DNA of 21,531 nucleotides from a virus, in the IMG/VR virus record IMGVR_UViG_3300018080_000092, positions 1 to 21,531 of that record; one strand, given 5' to 3'. The notes beneath the pieces are model-generated. The model saw only the letters and a list, made by a program, of their open reading frames with translations, had not been told where the DNA came from and ran no database searches. The position numbers and the translations under genes are program-made. Positions 883-21,531 of this stretch are shown piece after piece. Every line of letters begins with the position of its first letter. Positions within the stretch are counted from its first letter, which is position 1.

Positions 883-922
883 ATCCGCCTGTCTATGATA
901 CCACAGACAGGCGGATTGTCAA
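883..922 (-). promoter_or_regulatory. Helicase promoter with operator-like 12-bp dyad around the -10 box
   Basis: On the minus strand a perfect -35 box TTGACA (922-917) is followed after 16 bp by TATCAT (900-895), a five-of-six match to the -10 consensus. A perfect 12-bp inverted repeat (ATCCGCCTGTCT at 883-894, AGACAGGCGGAT at 905-916, 10-base spacer) places one arm between the boxes and the other over the predicted start near 888. The arms are 22 bp apart centre to centre, about two helical turns. This looks like a repressor operator controlling the helicase and possibly genes beyond it. The bound protein is unknown; the sequence differs from the operators at 3002-3051. Confidence 0.65.
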
Positions 923-923
923 A

Positions 924-1583
924 TTAGAATGGAATGTCAGCGTCAGTACGGGTTAGATCGAAGCCTTCCGGCCATTGCGTGTTGCTATTATTTTTGGCCC
1001 GTGCCAGGTCGGCCTCTCGCAGGTCGGCCCCTTCCAGGTCAGCCCCTCGCAGGTCGGCCCCTTTCAGGTCAGCCACTCGCAGGTTGGCCCCTCGCAGGTC
1101 AGCCACTCGCAGGTTGGCCCATCGCAGGTAGGCCCCGTGCAGGTTGGCCCCTTCCAGGTAGGCCCCTCGCAGGTTGGCCCCTCGCAGGTTGGCCCCTCGC
1201 AGGTCGGCCCGTGTCAGGTCAGCCCGTAGCAGGTCGGCCTCTCGCAGGTTGGCCCCGACCGCCCATCCCAATCTTATCATTTTCCAGAGCACTTCGGGCT
1301 CAATGCGACGCAAGCGGACCTCTCGATACCGCGCCTTTTGGTTATCTTCTCCGACCAGGCCCCGGCCCTCAGCCCACCAGGGCCACCAGCCCGTGGGAGC
1401 GTGAAACGCGTCAAGCCTTTTCATCAAGTGCCAGCCGCCAGGACCACACGCTTTCCCATCATACTCATACGGGTCAGGGTGCTTAAACCACGGTCCCCAT
1501 TTCTCCCCTTGCTCCGGGACTGGATATACCGTATCCTGCCCGCGATAGATCGTTGCGTTGTTATGATTAAGAAACTTAAACAT
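924..1583 (-). CDS. Pentapeptide-repeat protein
   Basis: The 219-residue protein ends in 17 consecutive pentapeptide repeats of A(D/N)LxX type (about residues 110-194), such as [10 protein letters not shown] and RADLR, which predict a right-handed quadrilateral beta-helix. The N-terminal 109 residues are rich in Trp and Gly and resemble no domain I can name with confidence. The ATG at 1583 overlaps the ERF gene stop as TGATG and sits behind AGGAGGGGG, so I prefer it over the GTG one codon earlier. The family includes DNA mimics such as MfpA and Qnr that bind gyrase, but others have unknown roles. Its place between a recombinase and a helicase fits interaction with DNA enzymes, an inference only. 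Confidence 0.85.
1002..1256 (-). repeat. Tandem 15-bp repeats coding the pentapeptide array
   Basis: Seventeen near-identical 15-bp units lie in phase with the reading frame of the pentapeptide protein. On the plus strand they read as variants of GCAGGTCGGCCCCTC. The periodicity also opens long plus-strand frames across this region, which are by-products of the repeat and not genes. Confidence 0.85.
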
Positions 1584-2263
1584 CACTCCCCCTCCTTTTC
1601 CTGGGCGTGTGCGGCCAATGCCTGCGTCATCTCGTCTATCGCGCTGGCTTTGAAGCCGGTGTAGCCAAGTTTTTTCAACGTATTCTTGACGTGGTTGATG
1701 TGCTTGTAGTAATCCATCGATTTTAGGATGGTTGCGTAGAACTCCGCCGCTGTTTGGCGTGTTTCGGCCTTGGGCGCTGGCTTGGGTTTCTCTTGCCTGG
1801 CCTCTGGCGCTGGTCCTGCGTCCGGTTCGTCGGCCAAGTCGCCGGTGCCAATGATGAAGTTCTTCAAGAGGAAGTATTTCAGGCCGCTGGTAGCTGCTTT
1901 TGCCAGCCCCTTATCTGTTTTGTCATCGGCCTCTGCCCACCACAGGCAATTCCAAATCTCCCCATTCTCGCTGTCGGCGAACGTGAAAGAGAATTGGCAA
2001 AGCCACTTGTTTTCGCGTCTTTCCACGCTGATCATCTCTGCAAAGAACGCAACCCCTTCACTGGCCAGCAAGGGCCGGATCAAATCTGAAACGTCGGCGT
2101 CCGATGCGTAATGGTACTTCTGGTAATCGTTCCATCCTGTTTTGGGCAGACGATTGACCTTCGCCATCACTCGCGCCAGCTTGGCGAAAAGTGGCGCATA
2201 CGCCGTTTTCACGTCCAAAAGCTTAACCTCTCCAGTTTCGTAGTCTAGCTGTTTTTCCGACAC
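1583..2263 (-). CDS. ERF-family single-strand annealing recombinase
   Basis: The 226-residue product matches the ERF family (Pfam PF04404). An N-terminal region of about 150 residues contains the typical YHYASDADV segment (about residues 50-58) and the conserved [20 protein letters not shown] block (about 112-131). A Pro/Ala/Lys-rich linker and a small helical C-terminal domain follow. ERF proteins anneal complementary single strands and in P22 help circularise the genome and recombine ends. Here it probably acts in recombination-dependent replication or repair. The stop overlaps the pentapeptide gene start (TGATG), and the start overlaps the preceding small gene by 19 bases. Confidence 0.9.
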
Positions 2264-2436
2264 GGTACACCCTCCTGTTCAAGAATTTTGGCGTAGACAC
2301 GTTTCGCTGTCTCGCCAGCTTTTTTATTGCCCAAGATCGGGGCAATTCGACAGTAGATGGTGAAGCCCCACGCCGACGCGTAATTGATGGCCTCTGCGTG
2401 CTCAGACCTCAGTGCTTCGTAGCTTATATCGTACAT
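2245..2436 (-). CDS. Small hypothetical protein upstream of ERF
   Basis: This 63-residue frame starts at the ATG at 2436 (MYDISYEALRSEHA...), with AAGGAG placed just upstream. A GTG five codons earlier lies within that ribosome binding site and is less likely. The protein is mixed helical and ends in a basic tail (PCRKNS). It overlaps the end of the preceding gene by 35 bases and the ERF start by 19. I do not recognise a family. Position suggests a minor early protein coexpressed with ERF. Confidence 0.6.
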   Translation of the reverse strand: MYDISYEALRSEHAEAINYASAWGFTIYCRIAPILGNKKAGETAKRVYAKILEQEGVPCRKNS

Positions 2437-2605
2437 TTTCACTCCTTTCACTTAATTCCCAGACCTGGTAGCACATTCGCGCCACCGGGCACTCAGAGCA
2501 GCCCCAGAAATCGGCCGGGACGTCCTGCCCGAAATGTGGGCAAGTACCCGCGTACTCGATAATCAGTGGGCCAGTCCAACGATCAAAATTTAACTCAGGC
2601 ATCAT
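2402..2605 (-). CDS. Small Cys-rich hypothetical protein
   Basis: The 67-residue product begins with ATG ATG at 2605-2600 behind GGGAG. It contains a cysteine cluster (CPHFGQ... followed by CSECPVARMC) with four or five Cys spread over 25 residues, which could bind zinc or an iron-sulphur cluster. The ending of the cluster resembles WhiB-like CxxC-type arrangements, but the match is too weak to name. It is the middle gene of the small early cluster 2245-2851. Confidence 0.6.
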   Translation of the reverse strand: MMPELNFDRWTGPLIIEYAGTCPHFGQDVPADFWGCSECPVARMCYQVWELSERSENVRYKLRSTEV

Positions 2606-2635
2606 TACTCCCTTCGATCATTCCAGCGGGGCAAG

Positions 2636-2851
2636 CTATTTCAGGCCAATATCTTTCAATAATTGCTGTGCTGCCAGAGCAATTGTCCTGGTATCCCCTT
2701 CAAACACCGCGAGTGATGGTTGTACTCTTTTACGGTGTTCCTTATCTTCCCACAGCAAGGTTCTCATGGCCCACTCATATTGACGCAGCGATTCCTTGAT
2801 AAGCTGCAATTCATAAGGTGATACTTTTAGAGTTACGGTTGCTTGTGCCAT
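2636..2851 (-). CDS. Small helical early protein, first gene of the leftward operon
   Basis: The 71-residue product (MAQATVTLKVSPYELQLI...) starts at the ATG at 2851 behind GAAAGGAATG. It has a short beta-like start followed by two predicted helices (about residues 12-40 and 54-70). The pattern resembles small phage proteins that pair a strand with helices for dimerisation or DNA contact, but no family is recognised. It is the first gene behind the leftward promoter at 3018-2990, after a leader of about 130 bases that carries the tRNA-like element. Confidence 0.65.
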   Translation of the reverse strand: MAQATVTLKVSPYELQLIKESLRQYEWAMRTLLWEDKEHRKRVQPSLAVFEGDTRTIALAAQQLLKDIGLK

Positions 2852-2911
2852 TGCTCATTCCTTTCTTAAGTCATATAGTGCGGACACAATCGCAGGCTTG
2901 CCCGGTTTATG

Positions 2912-2974
2912 CCCCCACGTCAGGACTTGAACCTGAACGGGCTATCATCCGTCGCCTCCGTGGATCTCGTGGGG
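2912..2974 (-). ncRNA. Degenerate tRNA-like element in the early leader
   Basis: On the minus strand the first seven bases CCCCACG (2974-2968) pair perfectly with CGTGGGG (2919-2913) as an acceptor stem. A canonical T arm, TCAGG-TTCAAGT-CCTGA (2936-2920), precedes the 3' strand. Only about 31 bases lie between the acceptor and T arms, some ten too few for a normal tRNA. An arm GGCGA/TAGCC can be drawn there, but its loop lacks U33 and there is almost no D arm. No CCA is encoded. It is thus a tRNA pseudogene or mimic, not a normal tRNA. It starts about 9 bases after the predicted start of the leftward transcript. Confidence 0.5.
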
Positions 2975-2989
2975 CTGTTTACTACCCTC

Positions 2990-3018
2990 ATTCTATCATA
3001 CCTATTGCCGTGTGGCAA
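2990..3018 (-). promoter_or_regulatory. Leftward early promoter
   Basis: The minus strand has -35 TTGCCA (3018-3013, five of six matches) and -10 TAGAAT (2995-2990, five of six) with a 17-bp spacer; transcription would begin near 2983. The -35 box lies within the palindromic operator 3002-3021. It would drive the early genes from 2851 onward. Confidence 0.6.
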
Positions 3019-3021
3019 TAG
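3002..3021. promoter_or_regulatory. Operator palindrome 1
   Basis: CTATTGCCGTGTGGCAATAG is a perfect 8-bp inverted repeat around GTGT. It overlaps the -35 box and spacer of the leftward promoter. Its centre is exactly 30 bp, about three helical turns, from that of the second palindrome, so two dimers would sit on the same DNA face. The likely ligand is the XRE-type protein encoded at 3320-3553. Confidence 0.65.
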
Positions 3022-3031
3022 TACAGCAGTA

Positions 3032-3051
3032 CCATTGTCGTATGGCAATGG
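3032..3051. promoter_or_regulatory. Operator palindrome 2
   Basis: CCATTGTCGTATGGCAATGG is an 8-bp inverted repeat with one imperfect position (T opposite G). It shares the core ATTG(C/T)C...GGCAAT with operator 1 and overlaps the -35 box of the rightward promoter. Confidence 0.6.
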
Positions 3052-3063
3052 ATGTGATAGAAT
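3035..3063 (+). promoter_or_regulatory. Rightward promoter
   Basis: The plus strand has -35 TTGTCG (3035-3040, four of six) and -10 TAGAAT (3058-3063, five of six) with a 17-bp spacer. The start would be near 3070, giving an almost leaderless transcript that places the AGGAGG site (3070-3075) at its 5' end. The arrangement mirrors the leftward promoter. Confidence 0.55.
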
Positions 3064-3081
3064 AGAGTCAGGAGGTTCGAG

Positions 3082-3336
3082 ATGGTTTACTTAATTCACT
3101 TTAACGTACCATACAAGCACGCAAGGCATTATTTGGGCAGTTGTGATGACTTGCAAGCTCGATTGGCGCGCCACAAGGCAGGCAATGGAGCCCGTCTAAT
3201 GGAAGTAGTAAAGAATGCTGGCATAACCTGGCAATTGGCCAGAACGTGGGAAGGAGGAAAGGGTAAAGAGCGGGAATTGAAGAGACAAAAAAATTCACCT
3301 CGACTTTGCCCGATTTGCAATGGAAGAACTCATTAG
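3082..3336 (+). CDS. Small GIY-YIG-like nuclease
   Basis: The 84-residue protein begins VYLIHF and continues HYLGSCDDLQARLARH, matching the strand-Tyr, Tyr-x-Gly and Arg elements of the GIY-YIG fold (Y3, Y17, R27). ERELKRQKN near residues 63-71 supplies the expected Glu and Asn. A CPIC motif near the C terminus (76-79) could bind metal. Small single-domain GIY-YIG proteins cut or nick DNA, but the substrate here is unknown. The ATG at 3082 is six bases after a perfect AGGAGG. It is the first gene of the plus-strand cassette and overlaps the repressor gene by 17 bases. Confidence 0.75.
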   Translation: MVYLIHFNVPYKHARHYLGSCDDLQARLARHKAGNGARLMEVVKNAGITWQLARTWEGGKGKERELKRQKNSPRLCPICNGRTH

Positions 3337-3553
3337 ACTGCTGAAACAACGACAGGGCTCTCAATCGCTGAACGAATTCGCGGCCGCGATTGGTATCTGG
3401 CCGTCCACATTATCGCGCTACTACTCTGGCCAGCGCAAGCCAAGCAGAGGGAGCTTAGAGAAAATGGTACGCTATTTCACTCAACGCGGAGACTTTCGCG
3501 CTGTGAGCGTGCTCACGGCTTATGCCTTTGGAGGGATGTATGGCGACAAATGA
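3320..3553 (+). CDS. XRE-type helix-turn-helix repressor candidate
   Basis: The 77-residue product contains a Cro/C1-type helix-turn-helix at about residues 14-48 (LNEFAAAIGIWPSTLSRYYS, then GQRKPSRGSLEKM). It has no C-terminal cleavage or peptidase domain, so it would not respond to SOS by autocleavage. Its start lies inside the end of the GIY-YIG gene without a clear ribosome binding site, which suggests translational coupling. The two palindromes at 3002-3051 upstream of its own operon are its probable binding sites, giving autoregulation and control of the opposite early promoter. Confidence 0.82.
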   Translation: MEELIRLLKQRQGSQSLNEFAAAIGIWPSTLSRYYSGQRKPSRGSLEKMVRYFTQRGDFRAVSVLTAYAFGGMYGDK

Positions 3554-3914
3554 TCTAGCTGATCAACTGGCGTGGGAGATCAAGTGGGCGAACCTGCCGG
3601 AACCGGAGAGGGAGTATCGCTTTCACCCTGACAGAAAGTGGCGCTTCGATCTGGCTTACCCAGATTGCCGGATCGCCTTCGAGTGCGAGGGAGGTATCTG
3701 GTCACGTGGCCGCCATACGCGAGGGCAGGGCTTCATCAACGATTGCGAGAAATACAACGCGGCCACGCTGCTTGGCTGGCGGGTGTTCCGCCTGCCAGGC
3801 CCCTGGATTGAGAGTGGCCTCGCTCTCGAATACGTGGAGCGAGTACTCAATGCTGAAGAAGATATTCGGAAAAACAGTAGAAAACGAGGGAAGCTACAGA
3901 ATGAAAAACAGTAG
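3540..3914 (+). CDS. PD-(D/E)XK-type endonuclease, Vsr/DUF559-like
   Basis: The 124-residue protein reads WRFDLAYPDCRIAFECEGG (D37, E48, E50) followed by GRHTRGQGFINDCEKYN and LGWRVFRL. This is the signature of a widespread phage family of small Vsr/DUF559-like nucleases with a restriction-type active site (D...ExE). I choose the ATG at 3540 because GGAGGG lies four bases before it; an in-frame ATG at 3522 has no such site. It overlaps the repressor gene by 14 bases. Possible roles include branch processing during replication or packaging, or attack on competing DNA; context does not decide. Confidence 0.75.
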   Translation: MATNDLADQLAWEIKWANLPEPEREYRFHPDRKWRFDLAYPDCRIAFECEGGIWSRGRHTRGQGFINDCEKYNAATLLGWRVFRLPGPWIESGLALEYVERVLNAEEDIRKNSRKRGKLQNEKQ

Positions 3915-4023
3915 AAACTGCGTGTTAGAATTCATAATCAGCGCTGTTCTCTTGCTCGGTATCCTGGCCCACGTGTGGAACGACCAGGGGGTAGGGGGAT
4001 GGATGCTAGGAGGGTTGTCGTAA
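3901..4023 (+). CDS. 40-residue single-helix membrane protein
   Basis: The short product has a basic, polar start (MKNSRNC), one hydrophobic helix at about residues 9-26 (LEFIISAVLLLGILAHVW) and a glycine-rich tail. The N-in orientation is likely. The start overlaps the nuclease gene end by 14 bases, with only a distant GAGGG upstream, so it may depend on coupling. Its stop forms TAATG with the next gene. Function is unknown; holin-like and superinfection-exclusion roles are both possible. Confidence 0.5.
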   Translation: MKNSRNCVLEFIISAVLLLGILAHVWNDQGVGGWMLGGLS

Positions 4024-4139
4024 TGGATGGGAGCTTGGCTGCAAGCGCGGGACTGGTCGTGTTGTTTTACCTATTGCTGCCGTGGATACTGACCGGTGTG
4101 GTGTGGTGGATCGTCGGTATCTTTGTAGGAAAGGAGTGA
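4023..4139 (+). CDS. 38-residue membrane protein
   Basis: The product starts at the ATG within TAATG at 4021-4025, with AGGAGGG eight bases upstream, one of the best sites in the window. After eight polar residues the chain is hydrophobic to residue 36 (LVVLFYLLLPWILTGVVWWI...), long enough for one tilted helix or two short ones broken at Pro20. It ends GKE. The strong initiation signal argues that it is translated. Pairing with the 40-residue membrane protein suggests that the two act together. Confidence 0.6.
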   Translation: MDGSLAASAGLVVLFYLLLPWILTGVVWWIVGIFVGKE

Positions 4140-4142
4140 ACG

Positions 4143-4481
4143 ATGAATCGTATTTTAATCGAAGCTTTTGATAATTGCCGTTTGAGACAAGCAAGTATTG
4201 AACGAAAACTGCGCCCACGCGGAATCGATGGTATCGCAGTTGATGATGATTACTGGGCATTGGAGTGGCAACGCCTGGATCGTATCGCGTGCAAATGCTA
4301 TGAGCGTATTTTTTTCAAGCTCGAAGCTGCTGAGGTGCTGGCCAGGGTGGTAGAGAAAGTGAGCAGTGGGATCAAACCCGCAGCAAGTGGGGAACCGGAG
4401 CTTGTGATTGATCCGGAAGATATGGTCCTTTTGGCTACCGCCCTGCGTCGGTATCGGGAGGCGACTCGTGAGACTCAATAG
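4143..4481 (+). CDS. Hypothetical helical protein
   Basis: The 112-residue product starts at the ATG at 4143 behind AAGGAG. It is largely helical and charged, with many Arg and Glu (for example LRQASIERKLRPRG and ALRRYREATRET). It is not membrane-bound and has no recognisable catalytic motif. It lies three bases after the second membrane-protein gene and overlaps the next gene by 14 bases, so it is part of the same transcript. No family recognised. Confidence 0.65.
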   Translation: MNRILIEAFDNCRLRQASIERKLRPRGIDGIAVDDDYWALEWQRLDRIACKCYERIFFKLEAAEVLARVVEKVSSGIKPAASGEPELVIDPEDMVLLATALRRYREATRETQ

Positions 4482-4635
4482 CAACGAAAACGACATTCAG
4501 GCGAAGATAGATGCAATTTGGCGCGATATGGAGCGTGGACTCATCTCGCCAGCCGTTACAGAGTTGCGCATTGCGCGCATTGAGGCAGAGGCCGGCTGGC
4601 GCCAGGCCGGGAGTATCTCATACCGTGCCGACTAA
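4468..4635 (+). CDS. Small hypothetical protein (GTG start)
   Basis: A 55-residue frame opens at the GTG at 4468, seven bases after GGGAGG. It codes for an acidic-basic helical peptide (IQAKIDAIWRDMERG, then ELRIARIEAEAGWRQ) with coiled-coil-like spacing. It overlaps the previous gene by 14 bases, the same overlap used elsewhere in the cassette. Function unknown. Confidence 0.5.
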   Translation: MRLNSNENDIQAKIDAIWRDMERGLISPAVTELRIARIEAEAGWRQAGSISYRAD

Positions 4636-20606: not shown

Positions 20607-20654
20607 TTTTCTGACCTTTCAACGTGATTAAGCACATATTCCTTTCGCTCCTTC

Positions 20655-20800
20655 CTTGCCAACCTACCAACCTTGCCAACCTATTTCCCCATGATATAGA
20701 ATCCCCCCTTTATACCTATGTAGGTTTTAGGTTGGCAAGGTTGGCAAGTTGGCAAATCACGCCTAAAATGCTTGCCAACCTGTTGCCAACCTTGCCAACT
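20655..20800. repeat. Iteron-like repeat array, origin candidate
   Basis: Eight copies of CTTGCCAACCT or close variants lie in three clusters: two on the plus strand (20655-20665, 20672-20682), three on the minus strand (20729-20739, 20738-20748, 20747-20756) and three on the plus strand (20771-20781, 20782-20792, 20791-20800). Units within a cluster repeat every 9-17 bp. The middle cluster can pair over 17 bp with either outer one (20667-20683 with 20728-20744, or 20731-20747 with 20783-20799). An A/T-containing spacer (20684-20727) separates the first two clusters. Placement next to the helicase gene supports an origin or a regulatory array. Confidence 0.7.
20709..20738 (-). promoter_or_regulatory. 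Promoter candidate for the morphogenesis unit, inside the iteron array
   Basis: The minus strand has -35 TTGCCA (20738-20733) within an iteron and -10 TATAAA (20714-20709) after 18 bp, each a five-of-six match. Transcription would start near 20702 and reach the zinc-ribbon gene at 20606 after about 95 bases that include the first iteron cluster. A protein bound to the iterons would compete with RNA polymerase. Confidence 0.5.
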
Positions 20801-21531
20801 AAAAGAGGTTTTTCGACCTGATTCCAACATAACCGCGTAGTTGATCGCCATCTAGTCGCCTACTTCTGGCCAACCTCCACTTCTTGAGTATGGCCGCCAA
20901 TTGCATTTGGTGGCCGCGTCTACTCGATCCGTGCAATCCATTATTCTCCAGTGTATCGAGTAGGTGGCTTGTTGGCGTGAACCACGTTTCTTGGGCCGGG
21001 TCAATTTCGTAGAACTGGCGCAAGATGTCTTCAATTGGGTCTTCGATCTCAAATTGCGCGTTTATGTTCTGAGCCAGGGCCACTTGCTCTTTTCGGAGCT
21101 TGCCCAGGTCGCCGTGTGAGAATTGCCGAAAGGCCTCAGCCCAAACCTGGTTTACGTCCACTTTCTTGGAATACGACCACATTATACTCTTTAGGTCGAG
21201 AATGAGAAAGCGTCGGTTTCCGGTACTATCGTTCAGAAATCCGTACTCGTTGTTGATCGTTCCTATAAACGAGGCCAGTGCCGGTTTGACAATGTCGTTT
21301 CGCCCATATGGTTTGCGCACTGTCACCACTTCCTGAGTCAGAAAGAACTTAAGCGCCTCCCTATCGGCGCGTCGCATCGTATTACCTAGCTCTCCGACTT
21401 CCCATATCCACTTGCGGATCAATTGGAGTTGATGGTCCTTGTTATCGGGCTCTATGTTCCCTTCGACGAACCTGTCCGGCAAGGGGGAACATAGCCATCG
21501 CGCAAAGAAAGATTTGCCGATATTTTGCGGC
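20799..21531 (-). CDS. VirE/VapE-family P-loop helicase, C-terminal part (continues from 773-1)
   Basis: This is the remainder of the helicase whose start is at 773, ending with TAG at 20801-20799. Bases 21409-21531 duplicate 1-123, so the P-loop at residues 217-224 is only just outside or at the edge of this copy. Visible here are the Walker B-like segment WEVGEL (residues 260-265), ADREALKFFLTQ, the PYGRN segment, the sensor-like GTINNEYGFL and the arginine motif GNRRF (321-325). Together these are the classic order of VirE-domain ATPases. The last 90 residues form a separate helical domain, possibly DNA-binding (SSRRGHQMQLAAILKKWRLA). The stop lies at the edge of the iteron array. Confidence 0.88.
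   Translation of the reverse strand, partial: PQNIGKSFFARWLCSPLPDRFVEGNIEPDNKDHQLQLIRKWIWEVGELGNTMRRADREALKFFLTQEVVTVRKPYGRNDIVKPALASFIGTINNEYGFLNDSTGNRRFLILDLKSIMWSYSKKVDVNQVWAEAFRQFSHGDLGKLRKEQVALAQNINAQFEIEDPIEDILRQFYEIDPAQETWFTPTSHLLDTLENNGLHGSSRRGHQMQLAAILKKWRLARSRRLDGDQLRGYVGIRSKNLF
21409..21531. repeat. Terminal direct repeat, right copy
   Basis: These bases are an exact copy of 1-123. They should be removed when the molecule is circularised, leaving 21,408 bp. Confidence 0.93.

What the first reader, a model, noticed from the sequence alone, without database searches (positions are those of the whole stretch)
2990..3063. Mirror-image promoter-operator pair controlling divergent transcription
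The 32 bases read leftward from 3021 and rightward from 3032 agree at 24 positions, and all eight differences are transitions. Each copy holds a palindrome (8-bp arms), a -35 box inside it, a 17-bp spacer and the same TAGAAT -10 box. The operators are centred 30 bp apart, on one face of the helix. With a small XRE protein encoded on the right arm, this looks like a compact two-operator switch that arose by inverted duplication of a whole promoter-operator unit.
Basis: partly seen in the sequence, partly recalled or inferred. Interest (0 to 1): 0.75.

Follow-up and report, generated by a model that had tools for sequence, protein, structure and literature searches.

The report
Mirrored phage promoters with twin operators
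A small bacterial virus has two back-to-back promoters, each overlapping a copy of the same palindromic site, which looks like an ordinary compact repressor-controlled switch, with an unexpected tRNA-like stretch at the start of one of the two transcripts.

Summary
Arms 2990-3024 and 3029-3063 match at 27 of 35 positions when mirrored, and all 8 differences are transitions. No shuffle of the 230-bp intergenic region came near (0 of 2000 reach 24). Each arm has a palindrome over the -35 box, a 17-bp spacer and TGATAGAAT. The palindrome occurs nowhere else in this circular 21,408-bp phage genome. It sits at the divergence point of nearly all genes (leftward) and a short rightward operon: GIY-YIG-like nuclease, 77-aa XRE protein, phrog_503 protein.

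Best reading: an ordinary divergent promoter/operator switch in which XRE dimers repress both directions, including their own operon. No binding was tested, and no relative preserves the site.

The 'inverted duplication of a whole unit' is not established. The two operators are more alike head-to-tail (16/20) than mirrored (14/20), and similarity stops at the -10 box.

From 2974 to 2911 (minus strand), about 9 nt after the predicted leftward start, lies a tRNA-like element: a perfect acceptor stem and T-arm, no D-arm. There were 0 such acceptor/T-arm motifs in 400 shuffled genomes.

The parts
3002..3021 (.). Left operator, CTATTGCC-GTGT-GGCAATAG; covers the leftward -35 box
   Evidence: operator pattern has only two matches with fewer than 3 mismatches in the window
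3032..3051 (.). Right operator, CCATTGTC-GTAT-GGCAATGG (7 of 8 arm pairs); covers the rightward -35 box
2990..3018 (-). Leftward promoter: TTGCCA (3018-3013), 17-bp spacer, extended -10 TGATAGAAT (2998-2990); predicted start about 2983
   Evidence: second best of 7 genome-wide sites; start position inferred
3035..3063 (+). Rightward promoter: TTGTCG, 17-bp spacer, extended -10 TGATAGAAT (3055-3063); predicted start about 3070, leader about 12 nt with AGGAGG at its 5' end
   Evidence: start position inferred
2990..3063 (.). Whole imperfect inverted repeat (arms 2990-3024 / 3029-3063)
2911..2974 (-). tRNA-like element: 7-bp acceptor stem, D-replacement loop, anticodon-like arm (GAT, G at position 33, one G.A), T-arm TCAGG-TTCAAGT-CCTGA
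   Evidence: ARAGORN -mt mode; not called in standard mode; 0 acceptor+T-arm motifs in 400 shuffles
3082..3336 (+). GIY-YIG-like small nuclease, first gene of the rightward operon
   Evidence: PF01541 E 5.9e-4, just below the curated cut-off; relatives aligned
3320..3553 (+). 77-aa XRE-family protein, candidate repressor; overlaps the end of the preceding gene
   Evidence: PF01381 E 1.3e-6; five-helix model, mean pLDDT 87
3522..3914 (+). phrog_503-family protein of unknown function (ORF from the first possible start; overlaps the XRE gene)
   Evidence: E 9.6e-34
2636..2851 (-). 71-aa protein, first gene of the leftward operon, no family; single-sequence model poor
1583..2263 (-). ERF single-strand annealing protein in the leftward operon
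   Evidence: PF04404 E 4e-15, phrog_155

Best explanation
This is the main control region of a small circular phage genome. Two sigma-70-type promoters point away from each other, with their -35 boxes 16 bp apart. Each -35 box and part of each spacer lies inside a copy of the same 20-bp palindromic operator. The 77-aa XRE protein, made from the rightward operon, most likely binds each operator as a dimer and blocks RNA polymerase at both promoters. It would thus shut off the leftward operon (ERF, helicase, and by read-through perhaps the structural genes) and limit its own synthesis. Shown: the anatomy, its rarity, the gene layout, the HTH family. Inferred: promoter activity, XRE as the binder, repression rather than activation, start sites. 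Whether the two units arose by inverted duplication or by operator duplication plus promoter selection is open.
For: Mirrored match 27/35, 0 of 2000 shuffles reach 24. Two of the 7 best promoter-like sites of the genome are exactly these. Operators found only here. All large genes run leftward from here round the circle, with the short rightward operon opposite. The second rightward gene is HTH_3/XRE, with a confident five-helix model whose weak structural neighbours include small XRE regulators and controller proteins. No second HTH protein was hit among the flanking genes scanned.
Against: No relative keeps the site. The XRE protein was found only in a sequence-identical contig among viral contigs, and not in the phage or plasmid records. 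The GIY-YIG relatives whose upstream DNA I read lack the arrangement. No binding was computed. Foldseek matches were weak (best E 0.13). The host and its promoter consensus are unknown. No integrase appeared among the proteins scanned, so a lysogeny decision is not supported.
Confidence: 0.62

Rival explanations
1. Same divergent promoter-operator pair, but the binder is another protein (host factor or the 71-aa product of the first leftward gene); the XRE protein acts elsewhere or not on DNA here.
For: The 71-aa gene is the divergent neighbour and has no family; the operator palindrome resembles no half-site that I could tie to this XRE protein.
Against: The 71-aa model shows no HTH or ribbon-helix-helix and is poor (pLDDT 61). 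XRE regulators usually act on sites beside their own gene (recalled). The operator occurs nowhere else in the phage.
Confidence: 0.17
2. A rival about origin, not function: an inverted duplication of one complete promoter-operator unit, later changed by transitions only.
For: All 8 mirrored differences are transitions; the shared extended -10 TGATAGAAT is identical, including non-consensus letters. Random mismatches would be all transitions about once in 6500 cases (arithmetic, 1/3 to the eighth).
Against: Operators agree better head-to-tail (16/20) than mirrored (14/20); after the -10 only 4 of 20 bases agree. The direct comparison also differs by transitions only, so it does not single out mirroring.
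Confidence: 0.3
3. The 74-nt inverted repeat works as a nucleic-acid structure (cruciform, replication origin or RNA hairpin) rather than as operators.
For: RNA of the + strand folds at -40.4 kcal/mol, z -8.8; single-stranded DNA gives a branched fold, z -6.6. On the + strand six of the eight differences leave G-U pairs (read).
Against: Any two palindromes in mirrored promoters give this. No + strand transcript is expected across it, no Rep protein was seen among the proteins scanned, and the promoter boxes with exact spacing would be unexplained.
Confidence: 0.06

Closest known systems
Temperate-phage switches with divergent promoters and palindromic operators (lambda OR; TP901-1 / Staphylococcus phage 13 OR, OL, OD)
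   Same: Divergent promoters with palindromic operators overlapping them, HTH-type regulator encoded alongside (phage 13 passages read; lambda recalled)
   Different: Two near-identical operators instead of three; the regulator is the second gene behind a GIY-YIG nuclease; no integrase or divergent CI/Cro pair seen in the scans; short 77-aa regulator without a second domain
Tn10 tetR/tetA regulatory region
   Same: Two operators between divergent genes, repressor represses both (two operators and repression of both genes: passages of PMC3037858); centre spacing of about 30 bp and promoter overlap are recalled
   Different: TetR family, not XRE; operators not known to me as mirrored with identical -10 boxes; drug-responsive
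Restriction-modification controller (C) proteins such as C.Esp1396I, C.AhdI
   Same: About 77-80 aa single-domain XRE proteins; weak structural neighbours of the model; C.Esp1396I binds its natural operator as a tetramer (title of 3clc), paired palindromes being recalled
   Different: No R-M genes recognised here; sequence searches gave no C-protein match; operator spacing here is 30 bp between two promoters

Membership tests
XRE (HTH_3) regulators | HTH_3 domain above curated cut-off | tested here: met
   28.8 bits against cut-off 23
XRE (HTH_3) regulators | Specific binding to a palindrome near its own gene | not testable with these tools
   Palindromes present about 270-320 bp upstream of the gene; no binding data
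Divergent promoter/operator switch | Two promoters facing away with operators overlapping both | tested here: met
   Sequence level only:
Divergent promoter/operator switch | Opposed transcription units begin on both sides | tested here: met
   ORF map
Lambda/TP901-1-type lysogeny switch | Integrase or other maintenance function in the genome | tested here: not met
   None among the 27 distinct protein segments scanned; small ORFs not all scanned, circular maintenance not excluded
Restriction-modification C-protein systems | Methyltransferase and restriction genes under the controller | tested here: not met
   Neighbours are GIY-YIG-like and phrog_503; no methyltransferase hit among the proteins scanned
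tRNA genes | Acceptor stem and T-arm with canonical T-loop | tested here: met
   0 in 400 shuffles
tRNA genes | D-arm and called by standard ARAGORN / Rfam | tested here: not met
   no tRNA call; U33 is G in the drawing

The most novel reading that the evidence does not exclude
A fully symmetric two-operator switch whose leftward, almost genome-long transcript begins with a D-armless tRNA-like element only about 9 nt from its start. Host RNase P or RNase Z would process or recognise this element, so that early phage mRNA is released with a tRNA-coupled 5' end: repressor and tRNA-processing control stacked in about 150 bp.
Probability: 0.1. Interest if true: 0.6.

Novelty: new member of a known kind. 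Interest (0 to 1): 0.33.

Why it matters
As a switch it is a neat, testable, minimal example: two near-identical operator/promoter units 30 bp apart in a phage for which I found no close named relative. Changing one operator at a time would show whether equal repression of both sides or a slight bias matters. The tRNA-like element at the head of the leftward transcript would matter more if it is processed, since standard tRNA finders miss it.

Tried and rejected
Relatives: the XRE protein, the 71-aa protein and ERF each brought only the identical contig 3300017991_000563. The GIY-YIG alignment gave 13 loci, 12 of them not the window's virus.

Search of the loci for another mirrored pair: one search ran on 101 entries. 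By my count these were 91 DNA loci plus 10 protein alignment rows taken in by mistake. None of the inverted repeats listed was a mirrored promoter pair before a GIY-YIG gene. L006 has arms scoring 8 and 8, but 3.8 kb away. L030/L031 have an inverted repeat (25/30) just upstream of their GIY-YIG gene, but no divergent -10 boxes or divergent gene that I could see. L103 has a TATAAT and a palindrome before its GIY-YIG gene and a divergent neighbour, but the promoter scan found 0 there and there is no mirrored copy.

Operator pattern with up to 2 substitutions in the loci held: 8 scattered matches, none paired.

Host: XRE protein matched 0 of 6 genomes carrying related terminases, then weakly 2 of 400 and 3 of 291 genomes of two phyla (HTH-level similarity, loci L106-L110 not read). 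T-arm plus acceptor 24-mer with up to 2 mismatches: 0 of 301 and 0 of 291; a 23-mer with up to 3: 0 of 6. Host unknown.

Rfam microRNA-type hits over 2983-3072 and 20725-20806 are far below gathering scores and reflect long hairpins; rejected. The tRNA-like stretch searched in phage records gave 152 records, none covering 80% of the query; the 20 rows shown are 32-base matches at E 10; treated as chance.

The 71-aa protein as ribbon-helix-helix: not supported by the model. RNA folding of the tRNA-like core is not unusual by energy (z -1.05; a longer piece z -0.31). This counts against a strong structure claim; the case rests on the acceptor/T-arm motif, and the motif was defined after seeing it.

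Literature: the listings showed no title about a phage transcript headed by a D-armless tRNA; only listings and the passages were seen.

Full report
What the window is. The window's first and last 123 bases are identical. An independent contig (IMGVR 3300017991_000563) with the same sequence runs across that junction, so this is a circular 21,408-bp phage genome. Compared base by base over window 2001-4500, the two contigs are identical, so the second is no evidence of conservation. All large recognisable genes run leftward: ERF annealing protein, pentapeptide protein, a VapE-like helicase crossing the junction, terminase, a portal-like protein, head and tail genes. Only a short set runs rightward from 3082: a GIY-YIG-like protein (PF01541, 20.5 bits against a cut-off of 22.6), an XRE protein and a phrog_503 protein. 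The finding lies exactly at the divergence point.

The observation. The mirrored arms 2990-3024 and 3029-3063 agree at 27 of 35 positions; the 8 differences are all transitions. In 2000 dinucleotide shuffles of the 230-bp intergenic region the best value was 23. In the whole window 1 of 40 shuffles reached 24 of 32 within a 60-base gap, and the real window holds one other such repeat, at 20657-20754. Both arms carry a promoter-like site, TTGCCA-17-TAGAAT and TTGTCG-17-TAGAAT, each with TG before the -10. Only 7 sites of that quality exist in the genome. The operator pattern has no other match with fewer than 3 mismatches. In that scan 5 matches at up to 3 mismatches are not clearly more than chance (9 of 100 shuffles have as many); the two exact ones are the point.

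How it probably works. Each operator spans its -35 box and part of the spacer, so a bound dimer should exclude RNA polymerase. The XRE protein is the natural candidate: HTH_3 above the curated cut-off, a confident five-helix model from a single sequence (mean pLDDT 87.4), and encoded in the rightward operon, overlapping the end of the GIY-YIG gene. It would repress the leftward operon and its own. The predicted rightward leader is only about 12 nt with the Shine-Dalgarno sequence at its very 5' end (sequence), so XRE synthesis may be low. Binding, direction of the effect and start sites are inferred, not shown.

Origin. Because the operators are palindromes, they look mirrored and direct at once, and as direct repeats they agree better (16/20 against 14/20; also D2). 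Downstream of the -10 boxes only 4 of 20 bases agree. The mirrored likeness is thus almost confined to functional parts. The transition-only differences support common descent of the operators in either orientation. I leave the origin open.

Comparative evidence. I looked for the arrangement in relatives found through the GIY-YIG protein, terminase, XRE, 71-aa and ERF proteins, and through a DNA pattern scan of the viral collection, which returned only the identical contig. Of 14 loci with a GIY-YIG match outside this virus, I read the upstream DNA of 13; L031, which carries the same match and the same repeat as L030, was not read. None has the mirrored pair. So conservation could not be tested for or against function.

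What else is there. On the minus strand 2974-2911, about 9 nt after the predicted leftward start, ARAGORN in its metazoan mitochondrial mode draws a D-armless tRNA: a perfect 7-bp acceptor stem, a 5-bp T-arm with loop TTCAAGT, and an anticodon-like arm with GAT, but G instead of U at position 33 and one G.A mismatch. Standard ARAGORN and Rfam do not call it, and its folding energy is not unusual. Yet the acceptor-plus-T-arm motif occurs once in the real genome and 0 times in 400 shuffled ones (the motif was defined after the sighting), and 0 times in 103 related or fetched loci. It is probably a tRNA relic or tRNA-like leader element. An attachment site is possible, but no integrase was seen in the proteins scanned.

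Verdict. Observation confirmed; regulatory reading likely; duplication story unproven; class of system well known (phage divergent switches, tet-type regions; and recall). Interest is moderate and lies mainly in the tRNA-like leader.

Noticed in passing
2911-2974, minus strand: D-armless tRNA-like element at the start of the predicted leftward transcript, missed by standard tRNA search.
   Followed up: partly
20654-20806: Iteron-like repeats TTGCCAACC / GGTTGGCAA forming a 27-of-32 inverted repeat just downstream of the helicase gene, plus a + strand TTGCCA-18-TAGAAT resembling the left-arm promoter; possibly a replication origin or second control site.
   Followed up: partly
1-123 and 21409-21531: Exact 123-base end repeat: the record closes into a circle of 21,408 bp; a second contig runs across the junction.
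   Followed up: yes
895-922, minus strand: Best promoter-like site of the genome (TTGACA-16-TATCAT with TG), just upstream of the helicase gene that starts at 773.
   Followed up: no
L030 and L031, 2337-2432: A different 25-of-30 inverted repeat immediately upstream of a GIY-YIG homologue in two related viral contigs.
   Followed up: partly
L103, 4934-4962: Palindrome next to a TATAAT just before a GIY-YIG homologue with a divergent neighbour gene.
   Followed up: partly
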